From assembly GCA_017848205.1 (NCBI GenBank), contig JAGDDO010000494.1, positions 1-9,580 of the forward strand: DNA of 9,580 nt, given 5' to 3'. Below the pieces are notes generated by a model, which was given only the letters and a program-made list of their open reading frames with translations, was not told the DNA's origin and made no database searches. The position numbers were made by a program, and so were the translations under genes. The stretch's first letter is position 1; each line of letters starts with the position of its first letter. Positions 1 through 8,753 of the stretch are shown one piece after another. The DNA is from Oscillospiraceae bacterium (lineage in GTDB: Bacteria > Bacillota_A > Clostridia > Oscillospirales > Ruminococcaceae).

Positions 1-1
1 A

Positions 2-259
2 GCTATAGGATATACCTATAATTACTATATAAATAATCTTTACAAAAGTCCTGATATAAAGGTTATAGCAGTAGATGGTATAACGCCTGAAAACGAAAAT
101 CTCGTAAATAATAAATATCCTTTCGCATCAGCTTATTATGCAGTTATCCGTGCAGATGAACCTGAAAACAGTGAATACAGAAAACTTCGTGACTACATGC
201 TTACAGATGAAGGACAGGAGATAATCAGACTTGCTGGTTACTGCCCTGCAAACGGGTGA
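2..259 (+). CDS. PstS-like phosphate/anion ABC transporter substrate-binding protein, C-terminal part
   Basis: The window opens inside a gene; the open frame starting at base 2 encodes 85 residues and ends at TGA 257-259. The peptide contains IGYTYNYYI, a stretch KVIAVDGITPENENL, then YPFASAYYAVIR and LRDYMLTDEGQEIIRLAGYCP. This order (a GY-start strand, a V-DGI-P-EN segment, the YPF-YxV strand and a final helix 'L-D-M-L-x-x-x-GQxxI--AGY-P') is what I recognise as the C-terminal lobe of PstS-family periplasmic/lipoprotein binding proteins, which capture phosphate or related oxyanions for an ABC importer. The substrate cannot be deduced from this end alone. The next gene starts 4 bp after the stop, so the two are probably cotranscribed and translationally coupled. 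No pstC/A/B genes follow, so this may be an orphan or sensor-associated binding protein. Confidence 0.75.
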   Translation, partial: AIGYTYNYYINNLYKSPDIKVIAVDGITPENENLVNNKYPFASAYYAVIRADEPENSEYRKLRDYMLTDEGQEIIRLAGYCPANG

Positions 260-263
260 ACAT

Positions 264-773
264 ATGAATGAGTATATCAGAGATCTTATTAATGAAAAAG
301 ATGAAATAATAAGAGAATCAGAAATCAAAATACGCAACGCCGCCATGTTCAGAATGGTGGAACTTGCACTGATGGCTTTTTTACTGGCTTTGAGTTATAA
401 CAGTCAAACATTGAATTGCGACCGGATATTCACTGGATTAGGCACTGGCATTTATTTGCTTGTTTTATCAGTCCTTTTCGGCATCGATATGTTTCTGACG
501 ATTTTATGGATCTTGTGGAGAAAGATCTTCCTTACTCATTTCCTAATGTTCATTTTTCTCGGACTTTTCTTCTATTGGGGATGGGGAATTGCGCTGCTTG
601 CAGGCGGAGGCGCATGGGGGATCGTTATAGCATTATTTTTAGCAGCGAACATTTGGCTTATGAATTTTGTTCCATTTAAGATTTTCAGAGTAGAAAAGAA
701 AGCGATAAAAAAGGCCGAAAAGGAAAAGCAGTGTGTGCTGGATGAACTGCAGAATGAGGATGCGGGATTATAA
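264..773 (+). CDS. Small polytopic membrane protein of unknown function, coupled to the PstS-like gene
   Basis: A 169-residue protein is read from ATG 264. An upstream ATG at 231 lies inside the preceding gene; 264 is preferred because it follows the previous stop (257-259) by 4 bp and has a GGTGA just ahead, typical of translational coupling. Residues 1-28 are charged and helical. Hydrophobic stretches lie at about 29-45, 59-85, 90-107 and 114-136, so four or five membrane spans are likely. The tail (143-165, VEKKAIKKAEKEK onward) is strongly charged and probably a cytoplasmic coiled helix. The run GWGIALLAGGGAWGI is glycine-rich, as in packed membrane helices. I recognise no family. Its coupling to a binding protein suggests a partner in uptake or sensing, but that is inference. 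Transcription ends at the T-run hairpin 20 bp downstream. Confidence 0.75.
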   Translation: MNEYIRDLINEKDEIIRESEIKIRNAAMFRMVELALMAFLLALSYNSQTLNCDRIFTGLGTGIYLLVLSVLFGIDMFLTILWILWRKIFLTHFLMFIFLGLFFYWGWGIALLAGGGAWGIVIALFLAANIWLMNFVPFKIFRVEKKAIKKAEKEKQCVLDELQNEDAGL

Positions 774-793
774 AGATTGAGTATTGATTATTC

Positions 794-825
794 AGAGGAG
801 CGATTGATATTGCTTCTCTTTTTTT
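794..825 (+). terminator. Rho-independent terminator of the PstS-like operon
   Basis: AGAGGAGC (794-801) pairs with GCTTCTCT (812-819), with one G-U pair, and is followed by an unbroken T run (820-825). It lies 20 bp after the stop at 773. Confidence 0.8.
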
Positions 826-852
826 GTGGCAGATACTTTTCAGCGCTTACCG

Positions 853-928
853 AAAAGGTGAACCGGCCAGCTGACGCTGACCGGTTAATTTATAATTTTC
901 ATCTCGAACGAGATGAAAATCACCTTTT
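853..928. other. Multibranched inverted-repeat structure (three-way junction)
   Basis: The outer arms AAAAGGTG (853-860) and CACCTTTT (921-928) are perfectly complementary. They enclose two contiguous hairpins: AACCGG-c-CAGC / GCTG-a-CCGGTT (861-886), and ATTTTCATCTCG / CGAGATGAAAAT (895-920), a perfect 12+12 bp inverted repeat. Every base from 853 to 928, apart from loops, a C/A mismatch and an 8-nt linker, is in a stem. It could be a small structured RNA, a readthrough-stage 3' structure or a decayed palindromic element. No promoter of its own is evident. Confidence 0.6.
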
Positions 929-945
929 ATATTTTTGATTATTCA

Positions 946-973
946 GAGGGGTCGTAAAATGCTCCTCCTTTTT
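946..973 (+). terminator. Second terminator-like hairpin, repeat of the first
   Basis: GAGGGG (946-951) pairs with CTCCTC (962-967), with one G-U pair, followed by C and TTTTT (969-973). The upstream 15 bases TTGATTATTCAGAGG (935-949) repeat exactly those at 784-798 ahead of the first terminator. Confidence 0.6.
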
Positions 974-1021
974 AGTTAAGACGTTCTTAAGAAAATATTA
1001 AGCCACAATACTGCGGTTCTG

Positions 1022-1826: not shown

Positions 1827-1827
1827 T

Positions 1828-1918
1828 ATAAATCAGCGTGGGGTCCGGGGCGAAGCACCGCAATCTCCCCACCCGGAAATACGTCGAAGCAGTATTTCCG
1901 GTTTAATCAGTGGTGTCC
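1828..1918 (+). repeat. MITE-like palindromic element, 5'-truncated copy (copy A)
   Basis: From TAAATCAGCGTGGGG onward this matches the inner element at 6923-7030 almost base for base up to its end, with a one-base insertion near the right terminus. It lacks about the first 19 bases, including the left terminal repeat. Two hairpins are present: CGGGGC-GAA-GCaCCG within GTGGGG/CCCCAC arms (1839-1872), and GGAAATAC...GTATTTCC (1875-1899). Both have GAA loops, the second with mismatches next to its loop. The right end is followed by CTGA. It starts directly after the DUF218 gene's stop codon. Confidence 0.8.
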
Positions 1919-3902: not shown

Positions 3903-3911
3903 AGAATAGAT

Positions 3912-4250
3912 GAGTAAGCTGTACGGTAGCATGATCGCTTCAGGTCATGAGGAAAGTCCGGGCATCGCAGAGCGGGGCAGCTGCTAACGGCAGCCGGAGG
4001 CGACTCCAGGGCCAGTGCAACAGAGATATACCGCCGGTTTTACCGGTAAGGGTGGAAAGGCGAGGTAAGAGCTCACCAGAGTGCAGGAGACTGTACTGCT
4101 ATGTAAACCCTGTCCGATGCAACGTCTATTGGTACAGCCTGTCTTAACATCTGCTCGGTGGACAGTCTGTAATGACGGCTTGAGGCCTGCGGCGACGCAG
4201 GTCCTAGATAAATTACCGTACACGACAGAACCCGGCTTACAGGCTTACTC
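3912..4250 (+). ncRNA. rnpB: RNase P RNA, bacterial A type
   Basis: The catalytic RNA of ribonuclease P, which with the RnpA protein removes 5' leaders from tRNA precursors. The ends pair as helix P1: GAGTAAGCTG (from 3912) with CAGGCTTACTC (to 4250). The universal core is present: GAGGAAAGTCCGGGC (3949-3963, P4 5' side and CR-I), CCAGTGCAACAGAGA-type P10/11 region, GGTGGAAAGGCGAGGTAAGAGC, TGTAAACCC, and ACAGAACCCGGCTTAC (4225-4240, P4 3' side). About 339 nt, normal for the class. Boundaries are taken from P1 pairing and the promoter. No terminator is visible before the next gene (4287), so the 3' end probably arises by processing of a longer transcript. Confidence 0.96.
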
Positions 4251-4286
4251 ATTTTATTTGATTATATCCGGAAGGAAGAACATAAT

Positions 4287-4900: not shown

Positions 4901-4950
4901 GGAAACAGAGACTTCGCCCGTGCCTCACTGATTTATAAATAAATCAGTTC
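4901..4950 (-). repeat. MITE-like palindromic element, short degenerate copy (copy B)
   Basis: Read on the minus strand it starts GAACTGATTT, keeps ATAAATCAGTG, GGCACGGGCGAAG and the terminal CTGTTTCC, i.e. the left part, hairpin-1 core and right end of the 108-bp element, but only 50 bp long with the second hairpin lost. It lies 5 bp after the stop of the gene at 4287-4895. No target duplication is visible. Confidence 0.6.
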
Positions 4951-5051: not shown

Positions 5052-5132
5052 GAAAACACTGATCAAACCGGGGAATACAGCGGGGCTTCGCCCCCGTGTC
5101 CCGCGATGATTTATGAATAGATCATCGTTTTC
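5052..5132 (-). repeat. MITE-like palindromic element, internally deleted copy (copy C)
   Basis: On the minus strand: GAAAACGATGATC at the left end, TTCATAAATCATCG, GGGACACGGGG, the GCGAAGC-closed hairpin, then GATCAGTGTTTTC at the right end. It is 81 bp and aligns with the 108-bp element except for a deletion of about 27 bp removing most of the second hairpin. The terminal repeats GAAAACgatGATC / GATCagtGTTTTC are well kept. The left end abuts the last codons of the CHAP gene and completes its stop codon. No clear target duplication remains. Confidence 0.75.
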
Positions 5133-6473
5133 TCAGGTGAATAATATCAGATCGAGAGAATTTATCACTCCGTCACCGTTTATGTCGAAGTCTGTGGTGT
5201 AATCAGCTTCAGGCAAAAGTAAAATGTAGTTTGTCAGGCTGTTTCTGAATTCACTGTTTCTGATAACCTCTTCGCCTTCCTCAGGCTCAGTTACTGTAAC
5301 ATCGAATGAAATACTGGAATATCCGTAAACAACGGTAACTGTCTGTTTTCCAGGTGCTGTGAAGTCGTAGAATGCAGTAAGCTTTGCGGTGTCAACATTT
5401 GCAATCTCACGGTTGTTGAGGAAAAACTTTATTCCGGAAAGATCAAGAAATTCATCAGTGTAGTACTCAGTCCTTGCTGCTGTACAGTCAAGTGAGAATA
5501 CTATGTTTCTTTCGACGGTGTTTAAGTCCGTGTCGCCGGTGATCCTTTTCAGATCCCAGAACTGGTCGTCAAGTGCTTCATATTCCGAAACAAATGCTTT
5601 TCCGTTTGAAAATGTGAGTACCTGATTTGTGTCTGCCGGATTACATATAGTATAAAGGTCGTTGATCTCAGTGAGAATGCTCCATTCAGTGTTTTCTGAA
5701 AAGTCGTTTTCAAGGAAGAAAACACCTTCTTCTGTTCTGGCAAGAACAAGATCTGAATAAACTGAACAGATCCTGTAATTACCGTCTTCAAGAGGTTCAA
5801 ATCTGAAGTTCTGGCGTACATCGGAAGAGTTTCTTGCATTTAATGCAGGATCCGCTTCGTCAGTGCGTGTAATAAAATCTTCTGAAAAACCGGATCTTAT
5901 TCTGAAAGCATCTCCGTAAAATCTGCCTTCAGTATCATCCGGGTAAATATATCCTAATAGTCTGTAGCCTCTGCTTTCCCATGTGGCATCAGACATTTCC
6001 TCGTAGCTTGTGAAAAGTGCGCCGCCGTACTGCGATTCAGAGATAAGAACTGTATTTCCGTCTTCCGAAACAGATTCTGCAACGGATACGTGTCCGGTGT
6101 AGTTGTCATACCTGTCAAAGCATTTTACCGAACCCGGCCTTGCTTCGCATCCGTACGAATAAGCGTGTGAATTTCTGTTTTCACCGTACCATCTGCCCGC
6201 ATTGTTGCGGCTGAGTGCCGGTGCTTCCCCTGTTATTTCAAATATGCGTCCCCACGCATAGGCTGTACAGTTAGGCATTTCACAGTGGAATGTGTTGTAC
6301 GGATTTTCGGTACTGTAGTAGTAGCGGTATTCCGGAGCTTCCTCGTTGTTTTCAGGAGCTTCAGTGCGGATCTCAAACTGTGTTTCATAAGCTGATACAG
6401 CCGGTGCAGCAGTGGAAAAAACGATTGCTGCAGATAAAAAAGAAGATAATACTGAACGTAAGTGAATGTCCAT
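5133..6473 (-). CDS. Secreted CHAP-domain peptidase/amidase with ricin-like, Ig-like and truncated dockerin regions
   Basis: A 446-residue exported protein. Signal peptide 1-28 (hydrophobic 8-24, cleavage after AVSA-28). The CHAP domain, about 56-178, shows the catalytic Cys69 in NCTAYAWGR, GCEARPGSVKCF (108-119) and TGHVSVAES with the catalytic His128; such NlpC/P60-like enzymes cut peptidoglycan peptides or amide bonds. Residues about 187-312 look like a ricin-type beta-trefoil (ENTEWSIL, YTICNPADTNQVLTF, DDQFWDLKRI). About 320-396 is a Big_3-like Ig domain (DEFLDLSGIKFF, APGKQTVTVVYGYSSISFDVTV). The C-terminus, DFDINGDGVINSLDLILFT, holds one intact calcium loop (Asp430, Asn432, Asp434, Asp441) of a dockerin; the preceding half-repeat is degenerate and the final helix is cut short at a repeat element. 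Start ATG 6473 has AAGGGA 10 bp upstream. Possible roles are cell-wall turnover or attachment to a scaffoldin. Confidence 0.85.
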   Translation of the reverse strand: MDIHLRSVLSSFLSAAIVFSTAAPAVSAYETQFEIRTEAPENNEEAPEYRYYYSTENPYNTFHCEMPNCTAYAWGRIFEITGEAPALSRNNAGRWYGENRNSHAYSYGCEARPGSVKCFDRYDNYTGHVSVAESVSEDGNTVLISESQYGGALFTSYEEMSDATWESRGYRLLGYIYPDDTEGRFYGDAFRIRSGFSEDFITRTDEADPALNARNSSDVRQNFRFEPLEDGNYRICSVYSDLVLARTEEGVFFLENDFSENTEWSILTEINDLYTICNPADTNQVLTFSNGKAFVSEYEALDDQFWDLKRITGDTDLNTVERNIVFSLDCTAARTEYYTDEFLDLSGIKFFLNNREIANVDTAKLTAFYDFTAPGKQTVTVVYGYSSISFDVTVTEPEEGEEVIRNSEFRNSLTNYILLLPEADYTTDFDINGDGVINSLDLILFT

Positions 6474-6826: not shown

Positions 6827-6830
6827 TTAA

Positions 6831-7050
6831 GTGAAAGCTGATCTGTTCATAAATCAGCGCTGGGCCAGGGGCGAAGCCCCGCGGTCTCCCAAACAGGAAA
6901 TAGTGCAAAGCCTTATTTCTAAGAAAACGCTGAGTTATTCATAAATCAGCGTGGGGCACGGGGCGAAGCCCCGCAATCTCCCCACCCGGAAATACGGCGA
7001 AGCCGTATTTCCACTTTAATCAGTGTTTCCCTAATCTAATCAGTGTTTCC
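6831..7050 (+). mobile_element. MITE-like element, full-length outer copy (copy D1), split by a second copy
   Basis: The left part is 6831-6922 and the right part 7035-7050, together exactly 108 bp once the inner copy and one CTAA are removed. Its ends are GTGAAAGCTGAT and CTAATCAGTGTTTCC, imperfect terminal inverted repeats. It is flanked by TTAA on both sides (6827-6830, 7051-7054), a 4-bp target duplication. It carries the GGGGCGAAGCCCC hairpin; the second hairpin has several mismatches, as expected of an older copy. No protein is encoded. Confidence 0.85.
6923..7030 (+). mobile_element. MITE-like element, intact inner copy (copy D2)
   Basis: A 108-bp element, GAAAACGCTGA ... TCAGTGTTTCC, inserted in copy D1 and flanked by CTAA direct repeats (6919-6922, 7031-7034). 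Internal order: ACGCTGA/TCAGCGT arms (6927-6952); GTGGGG/CCCCAC arms (6951-6956, 6980-6985) enclosing CGGGGC-GAA-GCCCCG (6959-6973); then a perfect 11-bp stem GGAAATACGGC-GAA-GCCGTATTTCC (6988-7012). Both hairpins close with GCGAAGC, known as an exceptionally stable DNA mini-hairpin. It aligns without gaps to restored D1 with 22 differences by my count. It is non-coding, so it would need a transposase acting from elsewhere. Confidence 0.87.
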
Positions 7051-7085
7051 TTAACGGAAAATATGAGTTTTATTAGAATTTCATT

Positions 7086-7916: not shown

Positions 7917-8753
7917 ATGGACAAAACGATAGCAAACAAACTTATAGCATTAAGAAAACAGAACGGATTTTCTCAGGCAGATCTGGCAGCGAGACTCGGA
8001 ACTGATGTTCCGACCGTTGCCGGATGGGAGAGTGCAGATATCTCACCTGATACGGAAAATCTTCTTAAAATAGCAAGACTTTACGGAATTTCACTGGACA
8101 GGCTGTTTGAACTTAATTCAGATCCTGTGAATCAGCGCTCAGCCATCTCGCTTGACAAGAACGCAGGGGAGATATACCCGAATGGAGCGCCGCAGCCTGC
8201 AGCGACACAGGGCGCGCCTGCGGCACAGTATGCTGAACCTCAGGATATGAGCGGATATTTTAAGTATGAAACAGCAGATGAAAGCGCAGGCCTTCCGGCT
8301 GCTGTAAACGCCGCGGCTCCGTCTGCCGGAACGAATGACGGAAGTATCTCAGCGCTCAGTGACGTGATCGAAAAAATAGGAAAAGACGAAAAATTTTATA
8401 AAAACCTTATGAAGTTTCCGTATCCTGTTGCAGCAGCCGCTGCTTTTTTTGCCGGCGGTGCACTGTTTGATCTGTGGCATCCGCTGTGGATGCTTTTCCT
8501 GACGATACCGCTTTACTATACGACTATTGAAGCTATAAGAAAGAAAAATGCAAATATTTTCTGTTATCCGGTTTTTGTAACGCTCATGTATCTCATTTCC
8601 GGATTCATGTTTGATCTGTGGCATCCGGGCTGGCTTACTTTCCTTACGATACCGCTTTACTACTGGCTCATAAACGCCTACGGAATAGGTGTGCCGGACA
8701 ACGATGATGACGACGAAAACGGAAAGAAGAAAAAGAAAAGAAGGAAAAAATAA
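7917..8753 (+). CDS. XRE-type HTH protein fused to a duplicated membrane module
   Basis: A 278-residue protein from ATG 7917, with AAAGGGG (7901-7907) as ribosome-binding site. Residues 5-64 are a Cro/C1-type helix-turn-helix (IANKLIALRKQNGFSQADLA, then VPTVAGWE, ISPDTENLLKIARLYGISLDRLF). Residues 65-142 are an Ala/Pro/Gly-rich linker. The membrane part, about 168-256, consists of two copies of one unit: YPV...FDLWHPLWMLFLTIPLYY (169-201) and YPV...FDLWHPGWLTFLTIPLYY (217-249), exactly 48 residues apart. The tail is DNDDDDENG followed by KKKKKRRKK. This layout suggests a membrane-tethered regulator that reads a signal at or in the membrane and binds DNA near it, possibly the operon's own 7086-7115 repeat. 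No transcription terminator with a T run is obvious after the stop. Confidence 0.87.
   Translation: MDKTIANKLIALRKQNGFSQADLAARLGTDVPTVAGWESADISPDTENLLKIARLYGISLDRLFELNSDPVNQRSAISLDKNAGEIYPNGAPQPAATQGAPAAQYAEPQDMSGYFKYETADESAGLPAAVNAAAPSAGTNDGSISALSDVIEKIGKDEKFYKNLMKFPYPVAAAAAFFAGGALFDLWHPLWMLFLTIPLYYTTIEAIRKKNANIFCYPVFVTLMYLISGFMFDLWHPGWLTFLTIPLYYWLINAYGIGVPDNDDDDENGKKKKKRRKK

What the first reader, a model, noticed from the sequence alone, without database searches (positions are those of the whole stretch)
6827..7054. Nested insertion of one 108-bp MITE-like element into another, with two 4-bp target duplications
Removing 6923-7034 (inner element plus one CTAA) restores an outer element of exactly 108 bp that aligns without gaps to the inner 108-bp copy (22 mismatches by my count). 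The inner copy is flanked by CTAA and the outer by TTAA. Equal lengths, gapless alignment and clean duplications together show two separate transposition events of a non-autonomous element, the inner one younger and with better-paired hairpins. Ends are imperfect inverted repeats (GAAAACGCTGA / GGAAACACTGA). Which transposase moves it is unknown.
Basis: seen in the sequence. Interest (0 to 1): 0.82.

Follow-up and report, generated by a model that had tools for sequence, protein, structure and literature searches.

The report
Jumping DNA nested in its twin
A 108-letter DNA parasite of Ruminococcus bacteria has landed inside an older copy of itself, and its ends and landing sites match a complete jumping gene of the common IS5 family in a related strain, which probably supplies the enzyme that moves it.

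Summary
It belongs to a MITE family that is abundant in the window's genus. Of 163 copies with readable ends and flanks, 106 carry a perfect 4-bp duplication (re-paired flanks: mean 25.2, maximum 39), mostly YTAR. Two cross-species empty sites support mobility. Only 1 of 160 copies lies inside an ORF.

The open question, which transposase moves it, now has a strong candidate. Ruminococcus sp. HUN007 carries eleven nearly identical full-length copies of a 1224-bp IS5-family insertion sequence. Its ends match the MITE consensus ends at 17/18 and 15/18 bases, and it makes the same 4-bp YTAR duplications. It was not found in the window's nearest held genomes, so movement of the window copies by it is inferred.

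This is a new family of a known kind. Nesting is rare (one clear case in 192 joins); three head-to-tail pairs were seen. The less ordinary feature is paired, compensating change in the third hairpin.

The parts
6923..7030 (+). Inner (younger) 108-bp MITE copy
   Evidence: closest copy in the nearest genome G001 is 98% identical over positions 3-108
6919..6922 (.). Left CTAA duplication of the inner copy (inside the outer copy)
7031..7034 (.). Right CTAA duplication of the inner copy
6831..6922 (+). Left 92 bp of the outer (older) MITE copy
7035..7050 (+). Right 16 bp of the outer MITE copy
6827..6830 (.). Left TTAA duplication of the outer copy
7051..7054 (.). Right TTAA duplication of the outer copy
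6927..6952 (+). Hairpin 1 of the inner copy (left-end stem)
   Evidence: DNA fold; pair counts
6953..6983 (+). Hairpin 2 of the inner copy (GGGGCGAAGCCCC core)
6988..7012 (+). Hairpin 3 of the inner copy; the stem with compensating changes across the family
   Evidence: 66 of the 72 double-change cells fall in this stem
1827..1913 (+). Further copy, left end missing (profile positions 16-102)
   Evidence: E 2.2e-23; also present in G001
5070..5132 (-). Further copy lacking hairpin 3
   Evidence: profile hit 5070-5130, E 5.5e-11; sequence
4908..4948 (-). Remnant of a further copy (profile positions 5-48)
   Evidence: E 2.8e-4

Best explanation
The feature is two members of one MITE family, one inserted into the other. 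The family has about 18-bp imperfect terminal inverted repeats, no coding capacity, three hairpins and a usual length of 108-109 bp. It is most likely moved in trans by an IS5-family DDE transposase of the type carried by the 1224-bp insertion sequence of Ruminococcus sp. HUN007. Proposed steps: the transposase binds the shared ends, mobilises the element and joins it to a 4-bp staggered cut at YTAR; repair then duplicates the 4 bp. The outer copy entered TTAA between two genes and decayed; it carries CTAA where the family consensus has CCGA, and the inner copy used that CTAA. Shown: anatomy, duplications, dispersal, empty sites, and the match of ends and target with the IS. Inferred: that this transposase or a close relative acts on the MITE, the chemistry, and that the window's lineage had such an IS when the copies moved.
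For: Exact 108-bp restoration and both duplications. 106 of 163 copies with perfect 4-bp duplications, 84 of these 106 YTAR, versus 25.2 on re-pairing. Two empty sites. 1 of 160 copies inside an ORF versus 2178 of 3200 random positions. IS ends equal MITE consensus ends at 17/18 and 15/18; 9 of 10 distinct 1224-bp copies have a matching YTAR duplication; IS5-family assignment. A related IS with 43% identical transposase (G158) has other ends, so the end sequence is specific.
Against: 57 of 163 copies have no exact duplication. The IS was not found in G001 or G010 and the window's own genome is not held. Beyond the ends no long similarity between IS and MITE. The locus in G001 has an uninterrupted element ending at the same base but a rearranged left side, so it is not a clean pre-insertion site. 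At the better empty site several substitutions sit at the junction.
Confidence: 0.87

Rival explanations
1. The MITE family is real, but in the window's lineage it is moved by another, unseen transposase; the HUN007 IS5 element merely shares the ends by common descent.
For: The IS was not found in G001 or G010, which carry many copies. Similarity is confined to the ends.
Against: Same ends and same 4-bp YTAR target. The two PF01609 transposases of G001 do not have the MITE ends on both sides: none near L228, one weak match on one side of L229. No PF01609 match in G010 or G004. G001 and G010 are draft MAGs, in which multi-copy IS are often lost (general knowledge).
Confidence: 0.2
2. The arrangement is not nested: two neighbouring copies, the first truncated, with a short duplication of the right end by slippage or recombination.
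For: Head-to-tail pairs exist in L130, L153 and L185, and the last 16 bp after the inner copy resemble the inner copy's own end.
Against: The restored outer copy is exactly 108 bp, gapless, with TTAA on both sides, and CTAA stands on both sides of the inner copy. A single insertion explains all of this.
Confidence: 0.04
3. A structured RNA or REP-type regulatory repeat kept in place by selection, not a mobile element.
For: Strong hairpins, compensating changes in hairpin 3, and, of 104 copies with a neighbouring 3' ORF end, 77 lie within 100 bp of it.
Against: Target duplications and empty sites. No Rfam family at these copies at gathering threshold. A secondary role is not excluded.
Confidence: 0.03

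Closest known systems
IS5-family insertion sequence of Ruminococcus sp. HUN007 (331-aa transposase, NCBIfam NF033581)
   Same: Terminal repeats (17/18 and 15/18) and 4-bp YTAR target duplication
   Different: 1224 bp with a transposase gene; no long interior similarity to the MITE
IS5-linked MITEs described in archaea (PMC3852290) and in Porphyromonas gingivalis, with Neisseria ATR/ISNme1 mentioned (PMC4596501); passages seen
   Same: Short elements without genes that share essentially only their ends with an IS5-family partner
   Different: Other hosts, ends, lengths and target duplications; no relation by sequence was tested
RUP of Streptococcus pneumoniae (recalled: about 107 bp, IS630-type partner, TA target; only listings seen)
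   Same: Size, copy number and proposed movement in trans
   Different: Partner family and target differ (recalled)

Membership tests
MITE | Short element without a coding sequence of its own | tested here: met
   108 bp; no ORF of 80 aa or more is confined to it
MITE | Terminal inverted repeats | tested here: met
   Left and right consensus ends
MITE | Target-site duplication | tested here: met
   106 of 163 copies, 4 bp
MITE | High copy number and dispersal | tested here: met
   Exact end pattern 230 times in G001, 213 in G007, 90 in G010; control 0
MITE | Mobility seen as filled and empty sites | tested here: met
   Two sites among 182 joined-flank queries, 72 of which had any cross-genome hit
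MITE | Autonomous partner with the same ends | tested here: met
   HUN007 IS; not found in G001 or G010
MITE | Movement in trans by the partner's transposase | not testable with these tools
   Needs a transposition assay
IS5 family (partner element) | IS5-family transposase | tested here: met
   NF033581 306.9 bits, cut-off 140; PF01609 and PF05598 over cut-off
IS5 family (partner element) | 4-bp YTAR target duplication | tested here: met
   9 of 10 distinct 1224-bp copies; YTAR motif of IS5 from passages of PMC10359306
REP/REPIN moved by a RAYT | Insertion without target duplication (recalled feature) | tested here: not met
   4-bp duplications
REP/REPIN moved by a RAYT | Linked Y1-type transposase | not tested
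   No search for Y1 transposases was run

The most novel reading that the evidence does not exclude
The MITE's internal hairpins are actively maintained, by selection or by a hairpin-templated copying process. The third stem changes on both sides together in different subfamilies, so the element may act as a structured RNA near gene 3' ends, or may need a folded single-strand form, while it spreads with an IS5 transposase.
Probability: 0.25. Interest if true: 0.55.

Novelty: new member of a known kind. Interest (0 to 1): 0.4.

Why it matters
It gives this Ruminococcus group a defined, very abundant mobile repeat with a candidate enzyme, a target rule (YTAR) and filled and empty sites, so transposition becomes directly testable and insertions can serve as strain markers. 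The co-varying hairpin raises a testable question: why bacterial MITEs keep strong stem-loops.

Tried and rejected
Rejected: a purely structural RNA (only RNase P reached Rfam's gathering score in the window; duplications and empty sites speak for mobility). Carriage by plasmids or phages: no match to the element in either collection. A local autonomous element in RUG13497: the 1285-bp end-bounded segment of L165 holds a 327-aa ORF that by my reading is not a transposase (no family search was run on it), and the 609-bp segment of L148 holds no candidate by the same reading. Of the two PF01609 genes of G001, L228 has no MITE end and L229 one weak match on one side.

Using the nearest genome as a clean pre-insertion site failed: its locus has an uninterrupted element at the same right junction, but its left side is rearranged and by eye the element is less alike than the flanks, so descent from the same insertion is not proven. 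Of the junction-spanning rows, those of e151 and e159 carried large gaps and were not accepted as empty sites; the five rows of e78 are the window's outer copy against uninterrupted relatives. A weak second nested candidate, L156 (opposite-strand fragment, E 7e-5), was not pursued.

Rows dropped: 268 profile hits gave 239 unique, 195 near full length; 163 were kept after requiring both ends, 20-bp flanks and removing duplicates. The hairpin count used 154 sequences: the inner copy plus unique copies of 104-112 bp.

Literature: nine searches of the held library. From titles and abstract starts, none listed a paper on this element or on a Ruminococcus MITE; most subscription papers are not held, so absence from print is not established. 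I saw passages of four papers and read none whole.

Full report
Observation. Searches confirm every coordinate of the finding: the inner 108-bp copy with CTAA on both sides, the outer copy restored to 108 bp with TTAA on both sides, 22 mismatches and no gap. A profile of the family finds three more partial copies in the window, at 1827-1913, 4908-4948 and 5070-5130 (sequences).

The family. The window's own assembly is not held. The nearest held genome, G001, shares 36% of the window's sampled 31-letter words; by contig numbers and lengths it is the MAG RUG13497, titled uncultured Ruminococcus sp.. In G001 the end pattern TARGRAAACRCTGAT occurs 436 times with up to one mismatch, its reversed control 3 times. 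Without mismatch it occurs in 10 of 11 genomes of the genus; four have more than 50 places (G001 230, G007 213, G010 90, G004 55), the other seven between 0 and 7, and the control is 0 in all. These are counts of end patterns, so a complete copy can count twice. The family consensus matched 3 of 297 sampled genomes of the bacterial family at E 1e-6, all three of this genus (G007 was evidently not drawn in that sample, since it matches). An exact 29-base pattern over the GTDB species collection gave 114 stretches, all from RUG13497 or RGIG2815, a goat omasum MAG. There was no match in the plasmid or phage collections.

Mobility. Of 163 copies with both ends and flanks, 106 have the same 4 bp on both sides (25.2 on average after re-pairing the flanks, maximum 39); for 5 bp the count is 0. 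Of these 106, TTAA is 41, TTAG 22, CTAA 18 and CTAG 3, so 84 are YTAR. The other 57 do not match; some differ by one base, and at least one (L103) was missed because its end was called one base off. Joined flanks of 182 copies were compared with loci of other genomes: 72 had any cross-genome hit, and I accept two empty sites. L168 (RUG13497) against L136 (RGIG2815) aligns without a gap at 95.6% over 388 bases, although several substitutions lie right at the junction. L103 against L119 aligns at 83.6% over 171 query bases with 5 gap positions; its element is a shorter variant at TTAA. The held loci were chosen because they carry the element, so no rate of empty sites can be drawn from this. Only 1 of 160 copies lies wholly inside an ORF of 120 aa or more, against 2178 of 3200 random positions in the same loci.

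Candidate transposase. Eleven full-length copies and one 351-bp fragment are present. Nine of ten distinct 1224-bp copies have a matching YTAR duplication; the tenth reads TTAG/CTAG. An eleventh, 1225-bp copy (L043) also matches but seems to share its flanks with L040, so it is probably not independent. The 331-aa product is an IS5-family transposase: NF033581 at 306.9 bits against a cut-off of 140, with PF01609 and PF05598 over their cut-offs; NCBI names it so for HUN007. The IS ends match the MITE consensus ends at 17 of 18 and 15 of 18 positions; elsewhere only short chance-level matches were seen. Among segments bounded by such ends with identical YTAR flanks in the held loci, 95 are 106-110 bp and 11 are 1224-1225 bp, and the rest are scattered lengths (repeated loci not removed). 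A transposase 43% identical to it in another genus (G158) has different ends, with matching YTAR flanks in some copies.

Against this link: no match to the IS in G001 or G010 by transposase domain, protein or IS DNA, and none to PF01609 or NF033581 in G010. G011 holds a 249-bp stretch 75% identical to the IS, G005 a weak match to its first 85 bases, and the G011 locus has one MITE-like end. Both G001 and G010 are drafts, but the gap is real.

Nesting and tandem copies. Of 192 near-full copies excised in silico, one join restored a full element across the junction, the window; L156 is a weak second candidate. Three same-orientation pairs separated by about 4 bp were found, in L130, L153 and L185, and in HUN007 two IS copies are separated by 4 bp, a single TTAG. 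My reading: each insertion leaves YTAR on both sides, itself a fresh target, so tandem pairs are expected, whereas nesting needs a YTAR inside a copy. In the outer copy that site, CTAA, stands where the consensus has CCGA, two substitutions away.

Relative age. Inner and outer match the global consensus at 94 and 80 of 108 positions and keep 31 and 26 of 31 stem pairs; the closest copy to the inner one in G001 is 98% identical. In G001 one uninterrupted element ends at the same base beside the same flank, but its left side is rearranged, so I do not claim it is the same insertion.

Hairpins. In 154 aligned copies 94.8% of stem cells are paired, against a shuffled mean of 92.4%. There are 72 double-change cells, 66 of them in the third stem, against a shuffled mean of 9.8 (maximum 18) and 7-28 with slid partners. 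Subfamily descent inflates such counts, so this suggests, and does not prove, that the stem is maintained.

Known relatives. YTAR as the duplication motif of IS5 comes from passages of PMC10359306. IS5-linked MITEs sharing little but their ends with the IS are described in passages of PMC3852290 and PMC4596501. In the review PMC10969869 the words nested and Ruminococcus do not occur in the text held. The kind is known; this family appears new as far as nine library searches show.

Noticed in passing
window 5133-6473 (-) and 5070-5132 (-): A CHAP-domain protein with an Ig-like domain, a lectin-like beta-trefoil region and a dockerin-like tail (dockerin match below Pfam's cut-off). Its stop codon lies right at the start of a MITE copy and the dockerin match stops short of the profile's end, so the insertion may have trimmed the tail.
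   Followed up: partly
window 3911-4255: RNase P RNA, bacterial class A, 281.4 bits.
   Followed up: no
window 8464-8518 and 8608-8662: Internal 55-bp direct repeat, 85% identical, in the gene at 7917-8753, which has an N-terminal HTH domain.
   Followed up: no
window 1-974: Alignment with the nearest genome's contig starts at 975, and in that genome a MITE copy lies just beyond the break (L056 7732-7841), so a rearrangement may have happened at a MITE.
   Followed up: no
L004 and L196: In L004 the loop of the third hairpin reads in the opposite sense (GGCTTCGCC for GGCGAAGCC), as if the hairpin had flipped; L196 gives a similar reverse-strand match.
   Followed up: no
L197 409-1608: Two MITE copies about 1 kb apart with CTAA at both outer ends in HUN007, the layout of a composite transposon; it may be coincidence.
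   Followed up: no
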